Part shown: in pieces, positions 54,246 to 64,000 of the stretch
Layout: each line of letters begins with the position of its first letter
Numbering within the stretch: the first letter of the stretch is position 1
NCBI RefSeq assembly: GCF_003814705.1
Contig: NZ_RKRA01000001.1
Coordinates: 3,726,776-3,790,775, forward strand
Length of the DNA: 64,000 bases
Direction of reading: 5' to 3'
DNA from: Georgenia muralis
GTDB taxonomy: Bacteria; Actinomycetota; Actinomycetes; Actinomycetales; Actinomycetaceae
The notes under the pieces: generated by a model
The model's input: the letters and a program-made list of their open reading frames with translations, nothing else
Database searches by the model: none
What the model was told of the DNA's origin: nothing
Position numbers and translations under genes: made by a program

Positions 54246-54986
54246 TCACGAGCGCAGGTGCCGGTCCGCAAGGTCGTCGAAGACCTCCCGGTTCAGCCGC
54301 AGGGCGTACCGCGCCTCCGCGACGACGGCGGCGCGCTCGGTCGCGCCGAACGGCAGAGCGTCCAGGCGGGCGCGGTAGGCGTCCTTGTAGGGCTTGACCT
54401 TCTCGATGCCGTCGAACCGGTAGAACCGCAGCCCCTCCTCGGCGACGCCGTAGTGCCGGCGGAGCATCGCGGCGACCACCTGCCCGCCCGAGAGGTCGCC
54501 CAGGTAGCGCACGTAGGCGTGGGCCGCGTACCCGACGTCGGTCGCGGCGACGGCGTCGAGCCTGCTCACGTAGCGGCGGACGGCGGGTACGGGCTCGACC
54601 CGGCCCCGCCAGGCCGGTCCCCACAGGTGGGCCAGGTCCGCCTCCAGCGCAGCGGTCCGGGCCAGCTCGGGCGCGACGAGCACGGCCGCGGCGCCGGTGA
54701 GCCGGCCGCCACCGGCCTCGAGAGCCCGGTACACCCCCAGCTGCTGCGCGGCGAGGTCGGCGTACGCGTCCGGTCCGAGACGGCCGTCGAGCAGCGCGGT
54801 CACGAAACCGGCCGACTCCGCCGCGCGGTGCTCGGCGCGGGTTCCCTCGCGCAGCTCGGTCGCGAGCCCGGCCGAGGCCCCGGTGGGGGCTCCGGTGGAG
54901 CGCCCGGCCGACTCCTCGGTCGAGGCTGCCGTCGAGGTTCCGGTCGGTCGCCCGGCCGGGAGCTCCGCCGTCAGCTGGTGCTTCAC
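54246..54986 (-). CDS. hmuO: Biliverdin-producing heme oxygenase
   Basis: 246 residues, GTG with AGGAGAAGG. First ~40 residues are a Ser/Thr/Ala-rich extension, then the HO domain: proximal His53 in TRAEHRAAES, GDLSGGQ (164-169) of the distal helix, and YRFDGIEKVKPYKDAYRARL of the C-terminal helix. Opens heme to biliverdin, CO and iron. The gene is transcribed away from the phytochrome gene across a shared 228-bp region, so it most likely supplies the phytochrome chromophore. Could also serve iron acquisition. Confidence 0.92.
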   Translation of the reverse strand: MKHQLTAELPAGRPTGTSTAASTEESAGRSTGAPTGASAGLATELREGTRAEHRAAESAGFVTALLDGRLGPDAYADLAAQQLGVYRALEAGGGRLTGAAAVLVAPELARTAALEADLAHLWGPAWRGRVEPVPAVRRYVSRLDAVAATDVGYAAHAYVRYLGDLSGGQVVAAMLRRHYGVAEEGLRFYRFDGIEKVKPYKDAYRARLDALPFGATERAAVVAEARYALRLNREVFDDLADRHLRS

Positions 54987-55214
54987 GCCTTCTCCTGTCC
55001 GTCCGTCCGGGGGTGCCGCAGCAGGGGTCGTCATTCGATCACGTCCGGTGGCCCGACCGCGCGCCACGGCCGCGCCACGGCGCGCCGCCTCCTGGGCCCG
55101 GGAGGACAGGACCGCCTCCGATGCTGCACGCTGGGACCCGGCGCCGAGCACACGGCGCACCGGATCGCTGCGCTGGGAGACCCGCGTGATCCGCACCCCG
55201 GGGACGGAGACTGC

Positions 55215-57662
55215 GTGGACGACTCGCTGGTGGCGCCGCAGGTGCCCGTCGACCTGGACAACTGCGCCCGGGAGCCGATCCACATCCCCGGGTCGATCCA
55301 GCCGCGCGGCGTCCTGCTGGCCCTCGCGGCGGACGACCTCACGGTTCTCCACGCCTCCGACAACACCGAGGTCCTCCTCGGGGTCCCGGCCCGTGCGCTC
55401 CTCGGCGGCCCGCTGGCCGGTGCGGTGGGCGCGGAGGCGGCTGCCGTCCTCGCGGCCCGCTTCGCCGAGCCCGGTGAGGTCCGTGACCGCAACCCGCTCA
55501 CGCTCACGGTGCGCGGCGCGGGCGTGGACGCGATCCTCCACCGCCCGCCGCGTCCGGACGGCGCGCGTGAGCGACCGGCCACGGCCTCGCCGGTCCCGGG
55601 TACCGGAACGGTCGCAGGCACCGGCACCGGCGCGCAGGGCGCCGGCGGTACGGCTGCCGGGGTCGTCGTCGTCGAGCTCGAGGCGGTCTCGGGCGACCGC
55701 CCCCTGACGTACACCGGCACGTACCAGGCGGTGCGCGGCGCGGTCGAGGCGCTCAACCGCGGCCACAGCCTCACCGCCCTGTACGACACCACGGCCCGCG
55801 AGGTGCGCGAGCTCACCGGGTTCGACCGGGTGATGGTCTACCGGTTCGACGAGGAGTACAACGGCGAGGTCGTCGCCGAGGCGCGTCGCGGCGACCTCAA
55901 CCCCTTCGTCGGCCTGCACTACCCGGCGACCGACATCCCCAGCCAGGCCCGCGCCCTGTACGAGCGGAGCTGGATCCGCCTCATCTCCGACGTCGGGTAC
56001 ACGCCCGCGCCGATCGTGCCCACGCTCGACCCGCGCACCGGCGCACCGCTGGACCTGACGTTCGCGACCCTGCGCAGCGTCTCCCCGATCCACGTCGAGT
56101 ACCTGCAGAACATGGGCGTCACGGCGTCGATGTCCATCTCCCTCCTCAAGGACGGGAGCCTGTGGGGCCTCATCGCCTGCCACCACTACTCCGGCCCGTT
56201 CGCCCCGCCCTACGGCGTGCGCGCGGCGGCCGAGTTCCTCGGCTCGGCCCTCTCGCTGCGCCTCGTCGCCCAGGTGGAGGACGAGCGCATCGCCGCGGCC
56301 CGCCGGGTGGCGCGCGACCTGGCCGGCCTGGTCGCGGCCTCGCGCGACGAGGCAGTGCCGCTGGCCGAGGCTCTCACCGCCGACGACGCGATCCTCGAGC
56401 TGCTCGGCGCCGACGGCGTGGTCGTGCGCGCCCAGGGCGACACCCGCACGCTGGGCCACGCCCCCGGCCCCGCCGGACGCGAGGCCCTCCTGGCGTGGGC
56501 GGGTACGTCCACCGGTGACTACGCCTGCACCACCTCGCTCGTGCGTGACGTCCCGGAGGTCGCCGCGCTGGTTCCCGACGTCGCCGGTGTCCTGGCGATC
56601 ACGATGTCCGGTGGGGACGCCGTGGCGTGGCTGCGCCGGGAGGTCGTCCACTCGGTCGACTGGGGCGGGGACCCGCACAACAAGGCCATCGCCCGCCTGG
56701 AGGGTGACACGGTGCGGCTGAGCCCGCGCAGGTCCTTCGACCGGTGGCGCGAGACCGTCCGCGGGTCCTCCCTCCCCTGGACCGACGACCAGGCCGACAC
56801 CGCGAGGCTGCTGCGCCGCCACGTCGTGGAGGCGATGTACACCCGCACCCAGCGCGACGCCCGCGCCGCCGAGACGCTCCAGTCCTCCGCGCTGCCCGCG
56901 CACCTGCCGCAGGTCCCCGGCTGGGTGCTCGACGCGCGCTACTCCCCCGCCGACGGCGGCCGGGTCGGCGGGGACTGGTACGACGCCCTCACCCTGCCCG
57001 ACGGCCGGCTCGCCGTGGTGGTCGGCGACGTCGCCGGGCACGGCCTGCACGCCGCGTCGACGATGGGTCAGCTCCGCAACGGCCTGCGCGCCCTCCTCGT
57101 GCGCGACCCGGACCCCGCTGCGGCGGTCACCGCGCTCGACGAGCTCGTCCGCGCCACCATGCCCGGCGAGATGGCGACGCTGCTCGTCGCCGTCGTCGAC
57201 CCCGGCACGGGTGAGGTCGTCTACGTCCGCGCCGGCCACCTGCCGCCCGTGCTGCTCGACGCCGACGGCGACGCGGTCCTCACCGACGACGTGCACACCA
57301 CCCCGGTCGGCTTCGTCACCGGGCACGTCTCGCCGGGCCGCCTCACCGTCGCTCCGGGCGGCTCCCTGATCCTCTTCACCGACGGGCTCGTCGAGCGTCG
57401 CGGGACCTCGCTGCGCTCGGCGCTGGTGTCGCTGCGGGAGGCGTTCGGGCGGGCGCACACGGCGGCCGCGAGTCGCGGCCGTGACGGCTCGGGCGGCGAC
57501 CCGGACGAGGGTGCCGGCCCTGACGGCGGTGCCGGTCCGGACGGGGGCGTCGACCTCGACGCCGTCGTCGCCCAGGTGCGTGACCCACGTTCGGACGACG
57601 ACGCCACCGTGGTGGTGGTGCGCCGGGTTAGGCTCGAGGCGATGACGGACGTGACCTCATGA
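55215..57662 (+). CDS. bphP: Bacteriophytochrome with PP2C/SpoIIE phosphatase output
   Basis: 815 residues, GTG with GGAG upstream. Order: N-terminal biliverdin-attachment Cys17 in DNCAREPIHIPGSIQPRG, PAS (~20-115), Gly/Thr-rich linker (~116-145), GAF (~165-345; PATDIP with Asp240, SPIH His293, ACHH His323/324), PHY (~350-530; WGGDPHNKA, tongue PRRSF 504-508), then PP2C (~570-805; GGRVGGDWYDA, VGDVAGHG, FTDGLVER, DDDATVVV metal ligands). No histidine-kinase domain. Predicted red/far-red sensor that dephosphorylates a serine/threonine-phosphoprotein, most likely the STAS partner encoded next. H of QPHG is replaced by Arg. The linker in PAS is longer than usual. Confidence 0.93.
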   Translation: MDDSLVAPQVPVDLDNCAREPIHIPGSIQPRGVLLALAADDLTVLHASDNTEVLLGVPARALLGGPLAGAVGAEAAAVLAARFAEPGEVRDRNPLTLTVRGAGVDAILHRPPRPDGARERPATASPVPGTGTVAGTGTGAQGAGGTAAGVVVVELEAVSGDRPLTYTGTYQAVRGAVEALNRGHSLTALYDTTAREVRELTGFDRVMVYRFDEEYNGEVVAEARRGDLNPFVGLHYPATDIPSQARALYERSWIRLISDVGYTPAPIVPTLDPRTGAPLDLTFATLRSVSPIHVEYLQNMGVTASMSISLLKDGSLWGLIACHHYSGPFAPPYGVRAAAEFLGSALSLRLVAQVEDERIAAARRVARDLAGLVAASRDEAVPLAEALTADDAILELLGADGVVVRAQGDTRTLGHAPGPAGREALLAWAGTSTGDYACTTSLVRDVPEVAALVPDVAGVLAITMSGGDAVAWLRREVVHSVDWGGDPHNKAIARLEGDTVRLSPRRSFDRWRETVRGSSLPWTDDQADTARLLRRHVVEAMYTRTQRDARAAETLQSSALPAHLPQVPGWVLDARYSPADGGRVGGDWYDALTLPDGRLAVVVGDVAGHGLHAASTMGQLRNGLRALLVRDPDPAAAVTALDELVRATMPGEMATLLVAVVDPGTGEVVYVRAGHLPPVLLDADGDAVLTDDVHTTPVGFVTGHVSPGRLTVAPGGSLILFTDGLVERRGTSLRSALVSLREAFGRAHTAAASRGRDGSGGDPDEGAGPDGGAGPDGGVDLDAVVAQVRDPRSDDDATVVVVRRVRLEAMTDVTS

Positions 57663-57952
57663 TCGGGACCCCTGGCGACATAGCGCTGCGCGCGCACGAG
57701 GGCGAGGTGCACGCCGTCCTCGTCGGAGAGGTCGACCTCGACGCCGTGAGCCGCCTCAAGGAGGAGCGCGACCACGTCGGTGTCGTCCACGCCGTCGACT
57801 CCTCGGCGCTGACGTTCCTCGACTCCTCCGGCCTGCGCTTCCTGCTCGGCCTCACCGCGCTCAACCCCGGGATCCGGCTCGTCGACCCCTCCCCGGTGCT
57901 CCTCGAGCTGCTGGAGATCACCGGCACCGCCGGCATGTTCCGCGTCGCCTGA
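57659..57952 (+). CDS. STAS-domain anti-anti-sigma protein
   Basis: 97 residues; ATG overlaps the phytochrome stop (ATGA). A single STAS domain with the phosphorylatable serine site TFLDSSGLRFLLG (Ser56/57), like SpoIIAA and RsbV. The N-terminal half is atypically short of beta strands for canonical RsbV but fits in length. As the translational partner of a PP2C phosphatase, it should be the substrate in a partner-switch: dephosphorylated STAS would bind an anti-sigma kinase, which is not encoded in this window. Confidence 0.88.
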   Translation: MIGTPGDIALRAHEGEVHAVLVGEVDLDAVSRLKEERDHVGVVHAVDSSALTFLDSSGLRFLLGLTALNPGIRLVDPSPVLLELLEITGTAGMFRVA

Positions 57953-62193: not shown

Positions 62194-62841
62194 CTACCCC
62201 TCGAGCAGGCCGAGGTCCAGCGCGCGCAGCACGGCCCGGGTGCGGTCCCGTACCCCGAGCTTGACGAACACCGCGGACAGGTGGTTCTTCACGGTCCCGG
62301 CAGCGAGGTGGAGCGCCCCGGCGATCTCGGCGTTGGAGTAGCCCGCCGCGGCCAGGCGCAGCACGTCGAGCTCGCGCGGGGTGAGCGGTTCCGGGCGCTC
62401 GAAACCCTCCACCGCGGCCGGCCGGGCGGAGACCGCGCGGAAGAGTCGGTCGGTCAGGCCGGGCTGGAGGAGCGTCCCGCCGCCGGCGAGCACCCCGATG
62501 GCACCCACGAGCTGGTCGAGCGTGACGTCCTTGAGCAGGTAGCCGCGCGCCCCGGCGCGCAGGGCCCGCAGGACGAGCTCGTCGTCGTCGAAGGTCGTCA
62601 GCACGAGCACCGGCACCTCGGACCCGCGCGCGGCCAGCTCCTCGAGCGTCGTGATCCCGTCGCGCCGCGGCATGCGCAGGTCCAGCAGGAGGACCTCGAC
62701 GTCGCCGCGCCCGACCAGTGCGAGCGCGTCGTCGCCGTCCTGCCCCTGCCCCACCACCTCGATCTCGTCGCTCAGCGCGAGGAGGCTGAGGATCCCCTGC
62801 CGGACGAGGGTCTGGTCGTCGACGACGGCGACGCGCGTCAT
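62194..62841 (-). CDS. NarL/LuxR-type response regulator
   Basis: 215 residues, ATG at 62841 with GGAGGCCCC. Receiver domain with Asp54 (VLLLDLRMPRRDG), DD at 8-9, Thr and Lys (LVLTTFDD and YLLKDV), and C-terminal LuxR HTH (LTPRELDVLRLAAAGYSNAE, IAGALHLAAGTVKNHLSAVF). The start overlaps the stop of the damaged kinase gene, so it was its partner. Target genes unknown; it is of the same family as DosR, but so are many others. Confidence 0.92.
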   Translation of the reverse strand: MTRVAVVDDQTLVRQGILSLLALSDEIEVVGQGQDGDDALALVGRGDVEVLLLDLRMPRRDGITTLEELAARGSEVPVLVLTTFDDDELVLRALRAGARGYLLKDVTLDQLVGAIGVLAGGGTLLQPGLTDRLFRAVSARPAAVEGFERPEPLTPRELDVLRLAAAGYSNAEIAGALHLAAGTVKNHLSAVFVKLGVRDRTRAVLRALDLGLLEG

Positions 62842-64000
62842 GGGGCCTCCGCGAGGGGCTCGGCTCGTGAGCCCCGCCCCCCTGCGTCCGCGACAGCCGA
62901 GCCCGCACCACCTGCCGCTCCAGGACCTGGCGTCGCGACACCAGCCGCGGCGTGGTCCGCTGCCGCCGGCAGCCGGATCGTCACCGTGAAGCCCTGGCCC
63001 GGCGCCGTCGTCGTGCGCCCGGACCACGAGGCCGTCGACGTCGGAGACCACCGAGATCTCCAGCCGGCTCGCCGCCGCGTGCCGGACCGTGTTCGTCACG
63101 ACCTCCTGCACCGCGCGGACGACGGCGATGGTGCGCTCCTCGTCCAGCGGTGACCGGTCGTCGTCGAGAGGGGCCCGGACGTCGTCGACGTCCAGCACGA
63201 GGGTCAGTCACGGCAGCCGGCCGACGACGGCGCGCAGGGTGGGCACGAGGCCGGCCGGCGCGTCACGGAGCTCGCCGACCGTGGCGCGGACGTCGGTGAG
63301 CAGGCCCTTGGCGATGTCCCTGGCGCGCGAGACGTGGGTCAGGGCCTCGCCGGTCGCCTGGTGGCCGGCCACCTCCAGCTCGAGGGCGAGCGCGGTGAGC
63401 TGGTGGCCGAGGACGTCGTGGAGGTCGCGGGCGATGCGCAGCCGCTCGTCGGTTCGGCTGGACGTCGCCAGCAGGGTGGTCGCCGCCCGCAGGTCGGCGT
63501 GGGTGGCGGCGAGCTCGGCCCGCGCGGCCGCCTCGCGGCGGGTGCCGACGACCACGAGCGCGGTGAAGACCTGGAACGCGAGGTAGGCGGTGGTGCTCAG
63601 CACCATCGTCGTCGTGTCCCACCCGGTGAGCGCCCCGCCCACGGCCACCGCGACCGTCTGGACGACGATGACCGCGGCGACGGCACCCACCGGCATCACG
63701 AAGGCGATCGTCGCCGTCGTGACGACGAAGAGCAGTGACGTGAAGCCGAGATCCGGTGCGAGGAGCCACACCGCCATCCCGGCGACGACGAGGGTCCCCA
63801 TCGTCGCCCGCGGGTCCCACCCCCGCGCCGCCCGCACATCGAGGCTCTCGACGGCGAAGGCGGCGACGTAGACCAGGTAGGCCGCCCACCACAGCGCGAC
63901 GACCGCGGCGTCGTCGCTCAGGCGCACCCCCGAGACGAGCACCGCTAGGCGATGTTCGGGCTGACCAACGCCTCGGCCGTCCTGCCGGGCGGGACGTCGG
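62838..64000 (-). pseudogene. DesK-type sensor histidine kinase, nonsense and deletion, 5' end outside window
   Basis: The frame is open at the right edge. Several membrane helices (from YLVYVAAFAVESL to VVQTVAVAVGG) precede the dimerisation domain with the phospho-His in RIARDLHDVLGHQLTALALE. After VGRLP a TGA (63208-63210) interrupts an otherwise continuing frame (LTLVLDVDDVRAP, VQEVVTNTVRHAAASR = N-box). After DDGAG the rest of the ATP-binding domain is missing and the frame shifts; PGQGFTVTIRLPA continues in another frame to a stop overlapping the regulator ATG. So two lesions: a nonsense codon and a ~35-residue deletion. Confidence 0.78.

What the first reader, a model, noticed from the sequence alone, without database searches (positions are those of the whole stretch)
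54246..57952. Self-contained light-input module: heme oxygenase, phytochrome-PP2C and STAS
The phytochrome (55215-57662) has all chromophore-binding features (Cys17, Asp240, His293, His323) but, instead of a histidine kinase, a PP2C/SpoIIE phosphatase with its metal-binding Asp residues. Its stop overlaps the start of a STAS protein with an intact DSSG phosphorylation site, and a heme oxygenase gene lies divergently upstream. Together they suggest that red/far-red light controls dephosphorylation of an anti-anti-sigma protein and hence a stress sigma factor. Phytochromes with kinase or cyclase output are well known; the PP2C-STAS pairing is much less described.
Basis: partly seen in the sequence, partly recalled or inferred. 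Interest (0 to 1): 0.8.

Follow-up and report, generated by a model that had tools for sequence, protein, structure and literature searches.

The report
Red-light phytochrome phosphatase with STAS partner
An actinobacterium carries a red/far-red light sensor fused to a protein phosphatase and encoded together with its probable target, so light probably throws a protein "partner switch"; but the stress sigma factor such switches usually control is missing from this genome, so what the light signal finally does is open.

Summary
Window 55215-57662 encodes a canonical bacteriophytochrome (PAS-GAF-PHY, all bilin-pocket residues) fused to a complete PP2C/SpoIIE phosphatase. An ATGA overlap joins it to a STAS protein with an intact DSSG site; an HO-1-type heme oxygenase lies divergently upstream. 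The fusion is not unique: I found about 46 relatives across Actinomycetota, and the architecture was catalogued in 2022, without a pathway.

New here:
(1) STAS and/or RsbW-like kinase genes lie beside the fusion in several separate lineages (29 of 194 genes within 1.5 kb; 6 of 436 further out).
(2) The sensor-to-phosphatase helix is exactly 48 residues in 31 of 31 homologues.
(3) The probable kinase here is a distant orphan gene; its relatives sit beside the fusion in other genera, and it co-occurs with the fusion across the family.
(4) The "stress sigma factor" step fails here: a complete 4.14-Mb genome has no SigB/F/G-type sigma, although the same model finds them in Mycobacterium, Geodermatophilaceae and others.

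Best reading: a light-gated phosphatase dephosphorylates the neighbouring STAS protein and flips a partner switch whose final target is unknown. New variant of a known kind; no step has been tested at the bench.

The parts
54246..54986 (-). Heme oxygenase (biliverdin supply); GTG start predicted, alternative ATG at 55034
   Evidence: PF01126 2e-53; 1iw0 1e-43 with the YVRYLGDLSGGQ distal-helix motif intact; the only PF01126 match in the genome
54987..55214 (.). Divergent intergenic region between HO and the phytochrome; site of the promoters if transcription is divergent
   Evidence: gene positions; no promoter was tested
55215..57662 (+). Bacteriophytochrome-PP2C: PAS (17-110), GAF (186-329), PHY (372-545), helical linker (524-559), SpoIIE/PP2C phosphatase (570-804)
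   Evidence: domains; conserved residues and linker length; AlphaFold2 model mean pLDDT 85.6 with one continuous helix 524-559
57659..57952 (+). STAS protein (anti-anti-sigma type) with DSSG phosphosite (Asp55-Ser56), translationally overlapped with the phytochrome (ATGA)
   Evidence: STAS_2 33.7 bits; junction; model pLDDT 87.7, best solved matches SpoIIAA in complex with SpoIIAB and RsbV in complex with RsbW

Best explanation
A light-gated partner switch. Heme oxygenase makes biliverdin, which binds Cys17 of the phytochrome. Red/far-red conversion rearranges the PHY tongue. The change travels down a rigid helix of fixed length that brings the two PP2C domains of the dimer into or out of their active pairing. 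The active phosphatase removes phosphate from Ser56 of the STAS protein translated from the same transcript. Unphosphorylated STAS then binds an RsbW-like serine kinase, most likely the unlinked solo HATPase at genome position 1,616,006-1,616,437 (-), and releases whatever that kinase holds. In this genome the released partner is not a SigB/F/G-type sigma factor; it is an unidentified target. Shown by sequence: intact domains and catalytic or phosphorylatable residues, gene overlap, recurrent linkage, co-occurrence, absence of SigB/F/G. Inferred: photochemistry, direction of the light effect, substrate identity, kinase identity, target.
For: Domains and residues. PP2C closest solved relative is Rv1364c, a stress-pathway phosphatase (3ke6, 8e-28). 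Linker F508-Q556 exactly 48 residues in 31 of 31 homologues that are 40-66% identical to the query, amphipathic with period 3.5-3.6, one helix in the model; this fits the coiled-coil linker mechanism shown for RsbU (PMC12143880) and the length constraint shown for phytochrome cyclases (PMC9587094). STAS and/or HATPase genes are enriched next to the fusion: 29/194 against 6/436 genes, Fisher 8e-11; with near-copies removed 17/144 against 6/335, 1e-5. In Cellulosimicrobium, Isoptericola and Cellulomonas PhB143 a kinase-STAS gene pair is convergent with the fusion; in Aeromicrobium a STAS gene overlaps the fusion's end as here. The solo HATPase occurs in 10 of 13 genomes with the fusion and 1 of 187 without.
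Against: No biochemical data. In this genome kinase and STAS are unlinked, and the family's other members (Oceanitalea, other Georgenia) lack an adjacent STAS, so substrate assignment elsewhere is open. The sister lineage G002 has the adjacent STAS but no close homologue of the solo HATPase. Co-occurrence is confounded by shared ancestry; within the genus it is only 5/5 against 1/4 (p = 0.048). Seven other STAS_2 proteins and four other PP2C proteins are in the genome, so cross-talk is possible.
Confidence: 0.6

Rival explanations
1. The same switch ends, in release of an alternative (stress) sigma factor, here a divergent or ECF-type one rather than a SigB/F/G homologue.
For: In all well-studied RsbV/RsbW systems the kinase is an anti-sigma factor (PMC12143880). 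ECF sigmas exist in the genome (one weak TIGR02980 hit, L019). Several lineages with the fusion do have SigB/F/G.
Against: The only full-length match to the SigB/F/G model in a 99% complete single-contig genome is the principal sigma (130.9 bits against a cut-off of 234). No sigma gene was recognised beside the kinase or the STAS.
Confidence: 0.2
2. The adjacent STAS is not the substrate of the phosphatase; the phosphatase acts on one or more unlinked STAS proteins and the neighbouring STAS is a decoy, scaffold or cross-talk input.
For: Most relatives, including four Oceanitalea-group and three other Georgenia genomes, keep the fusion without an adjacent STAS, so the phosphatase there must use unlinked substrates.
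Against: ATGA overlap here, independently in Aeromicrobium, and a 9-base gap in G002; DSSG intact; STAS homologue found only where it sits beside the fusion.
Confidence: 0.12
3. The phytochrome module senses something other than light in the cell, for example heme or biliverdin status or temperature through thermal reversion, with light a minor input.
For: Some organisms with the fusion have no recognised heme oxygenase (G002, G101, Modestobacter, Kineococcus, Quadrisphaera), so the apoprotein may have a role; PMC9587094 discusses apo-form functions.
Against: All bilin-contact residues are invariant in 31 homologues, including those without a recognised HO; in this genome the HO gene is adjacent.
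Confidence: 0.08

Closest known systems
PAS-GAF-PHY-SpoIIE bacteriophytochromes listed in PMC9587094 (Fig. 2)
   Same: Same domain architecture; listed there as one of several effector classes linked to phytochromes
   Different: Listed only as a branch of a tree; no partner, substrate, linker or pathway analysis found there
RsbU / RsbP of Bacillus subtilis (PP2C phosphatases that activate SigB through RsbV)
   Same: Sensor, helical linker, dimeric PP2C, STAS substrate, RsbW-type kinase; red light activates SigB through RsbP (as cited in PMC3019169)
   Different: No phytochrome in Bacillus; RsbP has a PAS domain; here there is no SigB-type sigma factor
Rv1364c of Mycobacterium tuberculosis (PAS-PP2C-kinase-STAS fusion)
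   Same: Best solved relative of the PP2C domain (3ke6, 8e-28)
   Different: All parts in one polypeptide, no phytochrome
YtvA / RsbL LOV-STAS blue-light receptors
   Same: Light input to a STAS-based switch
   Different: Flavin blue-light sensor fused directly to STAS and working through the stressosome, not a phosphatase sensor
PadC phytochrome-activated diguanylate cyclases
   Same: Phytochrome joined to a dimeric enzyme through a length-constrained coiled-coil linker (PMC9587094)
   Different: Cyclase output; several linker lengths, whereas the PP2C family here shows one length

Membership tests
Bacteriophytochrome (biliverdin-binding) | PAS-GAF-PHY core | tested here: met
   model matches solved phytochrome cores, e.g. 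6bap, 8u4x
Bacteriophytochrome (biliverdin-binding) | N-terminal Cys, DIP Asp, two pocket His, PRxSF tongue | tested here: met
   C17, D240, H293, H323, P504-F508
Bacteriophytochrome (biliverdin-binding) | Red/far-red photoconversion | not testable with these tools
   needs purified holoprotein spectra
PP2C/PPM phosphatase of RsbU-SpoIIE type | SpoIIE fold with metal-binding Asp residues | tested here: met
   PF07228 6e-37; D587, D605, D723, D795/796 invariant
PP2C/PPM phosphatase of RsbU-SpoIIE type | Helical linker N-terminal to the PP2C domain | tested here: met
   helix 524-559, constant length; its dimeric coiled-coil pairing was not modelled
STAS anti-anti-sigma antagonist (RsbV/SpoIIAA type) | STAS fold with phosphorylatable Ser/Thr at the D-S-S-G position | tested here: met
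   for Pfam; for fold matches to SpoIIAA and RsbV; below the NCBIfam anti-sigma-antagonist cut-off (26.7 against 53.45 bits); first helix shorter than in paralogues
SigB-type partner-switching stress pathway | RsbW-type serine kinase | tested here: inconclusive
   solo HATPase_c_2 at 1,616,006-1,616,437 present but unlinked; supported by linkage elsewhere and co-occurrence
SigB-type partner-switching stress pathway | SigB/F/G-family sigma factor | tested here: not met
   no match over cut-off in this genome; the same model finds them over cut-off in 8 of 28 genomes with the fusion
Heme oxygenase (HO-1 type) | HO fold and distal-helix glycines | tested here: met
   PF01126 2e-53; alignment to 1iw0

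The most novel reading that the evidence does not exclude
A phytochrome-controlled partner switch that does not end in a SigB-type sigma factor: in Georgenia, Cellulomonadaceae and Promicromonosporaceae the light-controlled STAS/kinase pair regulates a different, still unidentified class of target, so red light is wired to cell physiology by a sigma-independent or unconventional-sigma partner switch.
Probability: 0.45. Interest if true: 0.65.

Novelty: new variant of a known kind. Interest (0 to 1): 0.5.

Why it matters
Phytochromes with kinase or cyclase outputs are well studied; a phosphatase output leading to a partner switch has, as far as the searched library shows, only been listed as an architecture. 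Here the sensor, its chromophore enzyme and a probable substrate are encoded together, and comparative evidence names a kinase. The question of how shared sensor domains control PP2C phosphatases, raised for RsbU-like enzymes in PMC12143880, becomes testable with a reversible light input and a linker of fixed length. It also poses a clear puzzle: what does an RsbV/RsbW-type switch regulate in bacteria that lack SigB-type sigma factors?

Tried and rejected
Viral contigs: no relative found. Chance or assembly artefact: rejected, because the locus is intact with 96% protein identity in a sister species and the family is spread over Actinomycetota. Chromophore pocket lost or a pseudogene: rejected by conserved residues and an open frame. 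Apparent loss of Cys in G013: a start-codon miscall, the Cys is present upstream. STAS relatives in the PDB by sequence alone: none at E 0.01, so the fold comparison was used instead. Other HATPase_c_2 hits in the genome: by context in the predicted proteins most look like histidine kinases; only the solo gene and the SpoIIE-HATPase fusion look RsbW-like. Functional literature on phytochrome-SpoIIE with STAS or anti-sigma terms: none found; subscription papers are not in the library.
Full report
What is there. The window holds a divergent gene pair and an overlapping third gene: heme oxygenase (54246-54986, -), a phytochrome-phosphatase (55215-57662, +) and a STAS protein (57659-57952, +) that begins inside the ATGA ending the phytochrome. 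The phytochrome has PAS, GAF and PHY domains and, instead of a histidine kinase, a SpoIIE/PP2C domain. An AlphaFold2 model (mean pLDDT 85.6) gives a phytochrome core like solved structures, one uninterrupted helix at 524-559 and a PP2C-like beta-rich domain. The STAS model matches SpoIIAA bound to SpoIIAB and RsbV bound to RsbW best.

Where it comes from. The window is position 3,726,776-3,790,775 of a single-contig 4.14-Mb genome, 99% complete. That is inference.

The fusion is a family. Thirteen of 200 genomes of the bacterial family hold the full fusion, and a scan of named genomes gave about 46 in Georgenia, Oceanitalea, Cellulosimicrobium, Isoptericola, Cellulomonas, Mycobacterium, Geodermatophilaceae, Frankia, Nocardioides, Aeromicrobium, Kineococcus and others. 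A tree places the window's protein with a sister-species copy (G052) and G002, next to the Oceanitalea group; three other Georgenia species carry a distinct, distant lineage of the same fusion in which the heme oxygenase gene overlaps the start of the fusion by ATGA. So the same genus has acquired or kept two versions.

Evidence for the switch. Predicted STAS or RsbW-like HATPase genes make up 29 of 194 genes within 1.5 kb of the fusion but 6 of 436 genes further out (Fisher 8e-11). Removing near-copies leaves 17 of 144 against 6 of 335 (1e-5). The arrangements differ and lie on separate branches: STAS overlapping or directly downstream (this window, G052, G002, Aeromicrobium), kinase-STAS pair convergent (Cellulosimicrobium, Isoptericola, Cellulomonas PhB143), kinase convergent (G013), STAS and kinase upstream (Nocardioides D00038, Geodermatophilus poikilotrophus), kinase only (Blastococcus massiliensis, Quadrisphaera), STAS plus kinase (Mycobacterium asiaticum, whose STAS lacks the DSSG Ser), and a STAS 1.4 kb away in Nocardioides lijunqiniae. 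The local gene caller and local HMMs behind these counts are home-made; the key examples were checked with Pfam, of which the Cellulosimicrobium pair and the Mycobacterium and Aeromicrobium STAS passed, the G013 kinase was below its cut-off, and the Quadrisphaera stretch gave no hit because that query was off frame.

The kinase in this genome. HATPase_c_2 gives 17 hits; apart from histidine kinases the candidates are a solo 144-aa protein (genome 1,616,006-1,616,437, -) and the C-terminus of a SpoIIE-HATPase fusion. The solo protein is 42-46% identical to the kinases that sit beside the fusion in Cellulosimicrobium, Isoptericola, Cellulomonas PhB143 and G013, more than it is to the fusion-type kinase of its own genome (35%). 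Its homologues occur in 11 of 200 family genomes, 10 of which have the phytochrome-PP2C (Fisher 1e-13, not corrected for ancestry); inside the genus the pattern is 5 of 5 against 1 of 4 (p = 0.048). Heme oxygenase follows the fusion even more closely inside the genus: 5 of 5 against 0 of 4 (p = 0.008).

Signal path inside the protein. The distance from the PHY tongue motif (F508) to the helix end at the PP2C domain (Q556) is 48 residues in all 31 homologues, and 30 residues from there to the first metal site in 30 of 31, although they are only 40-66% identical to the query. Hydrophobic positions repeat with a period of 3.5-3.6. PMC12143880 shows that RsbU is switched on when flexible linkers form a coiled coil that pairs the PP2C domains, and argues that this is general for sensor-PP2C proteins; PMC9587094 shows that linker length governs light control in phytochrome cyclases. 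It is not proof of it.

What does not hold. TIGR02980 finds in this genome only the principal sigma factor and a partial ECF hit. The same model reports SigB/F/G sigmas over its cut-off in 8 of 28 genomes with the fusion (Mycobacterium, Nocardioides D00038, Geodermatophilaceae, Kineococcus, Quadrisphaera), but in none of the Georgenia, Oceanitalea-group, Cellulomonas, Cellulosimicrobium or Isoptericola genomes tested. So either the kinase holds an unrelated sigma, or the switch has a non-sigma target. The direction of the light effect, the chemistry and the substrate are untested.

Novelty. The domain architecture is listed as a known effector class in PMC9587094, and red light acting through a PP2C protein (RsbP) on SigB is known in Bacillus (cited in PMC3019169). 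I found no paper in the library that describes the STAS or kinase partnership.

Noticed in passing
G002 (L073) and G101 (L075); also genomes of L110, L123, L131: Genomes with the phytochrome-PP2C, and with the chromophore Cys where aligned, but no match to the heme oxygenase family PF01126; the source of bilin there is unknown.
   Followed up: partly
genome G000:C1:1,886,996-1,891,854 (locus L085: 6943-7311, 7440-9677, 11526-11882): A second partner-switch candidate: a PAS-SpoIIE-HATPase fusion protein flanked by two STAS genes, with a probable transposase gene in between (Pfam).
   Followed up: partly
window 62194-63942: A HisKA_3 histidine kinase piece (63208-63942) and a separate open frame that joins a HATPase domain to a response regulator with LuxR-type DNA-binding domain (62194-63198). 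In the sister genome the regulator is predicted as a separate 215-aa gene, so this may be a frameshift in the kinase gene or a gene-caller artefact.
   Followed up: partly
window 55215-57662, residues 117-147 and about 748-778: Two low-complexity Gly/Ala/Asp/Thr-rich insertions, in the PAS domain and near the end of the PP2C domain; among the compared proteins of A1 they are present only in this genome and its sister G052; largely low model confidence.
   Followed up: partly
window 57659-57952 and L073 5596-5901: The STAS protein has a shortened first helix (deletion of several residues) compared with its paralogues, shared with the G002 homologue.
   Followed up: partly
Georgenia genomes G107, G126, G133 (L080-L082) against window/G052: Two distant lineages of phytochrome-PP2C occur in one genus, one with a divergent heme oxygenase and STAS, the other with heme oxygenase overlapping the phytochrome start and no adjacent STAS.
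   Followed up: partly
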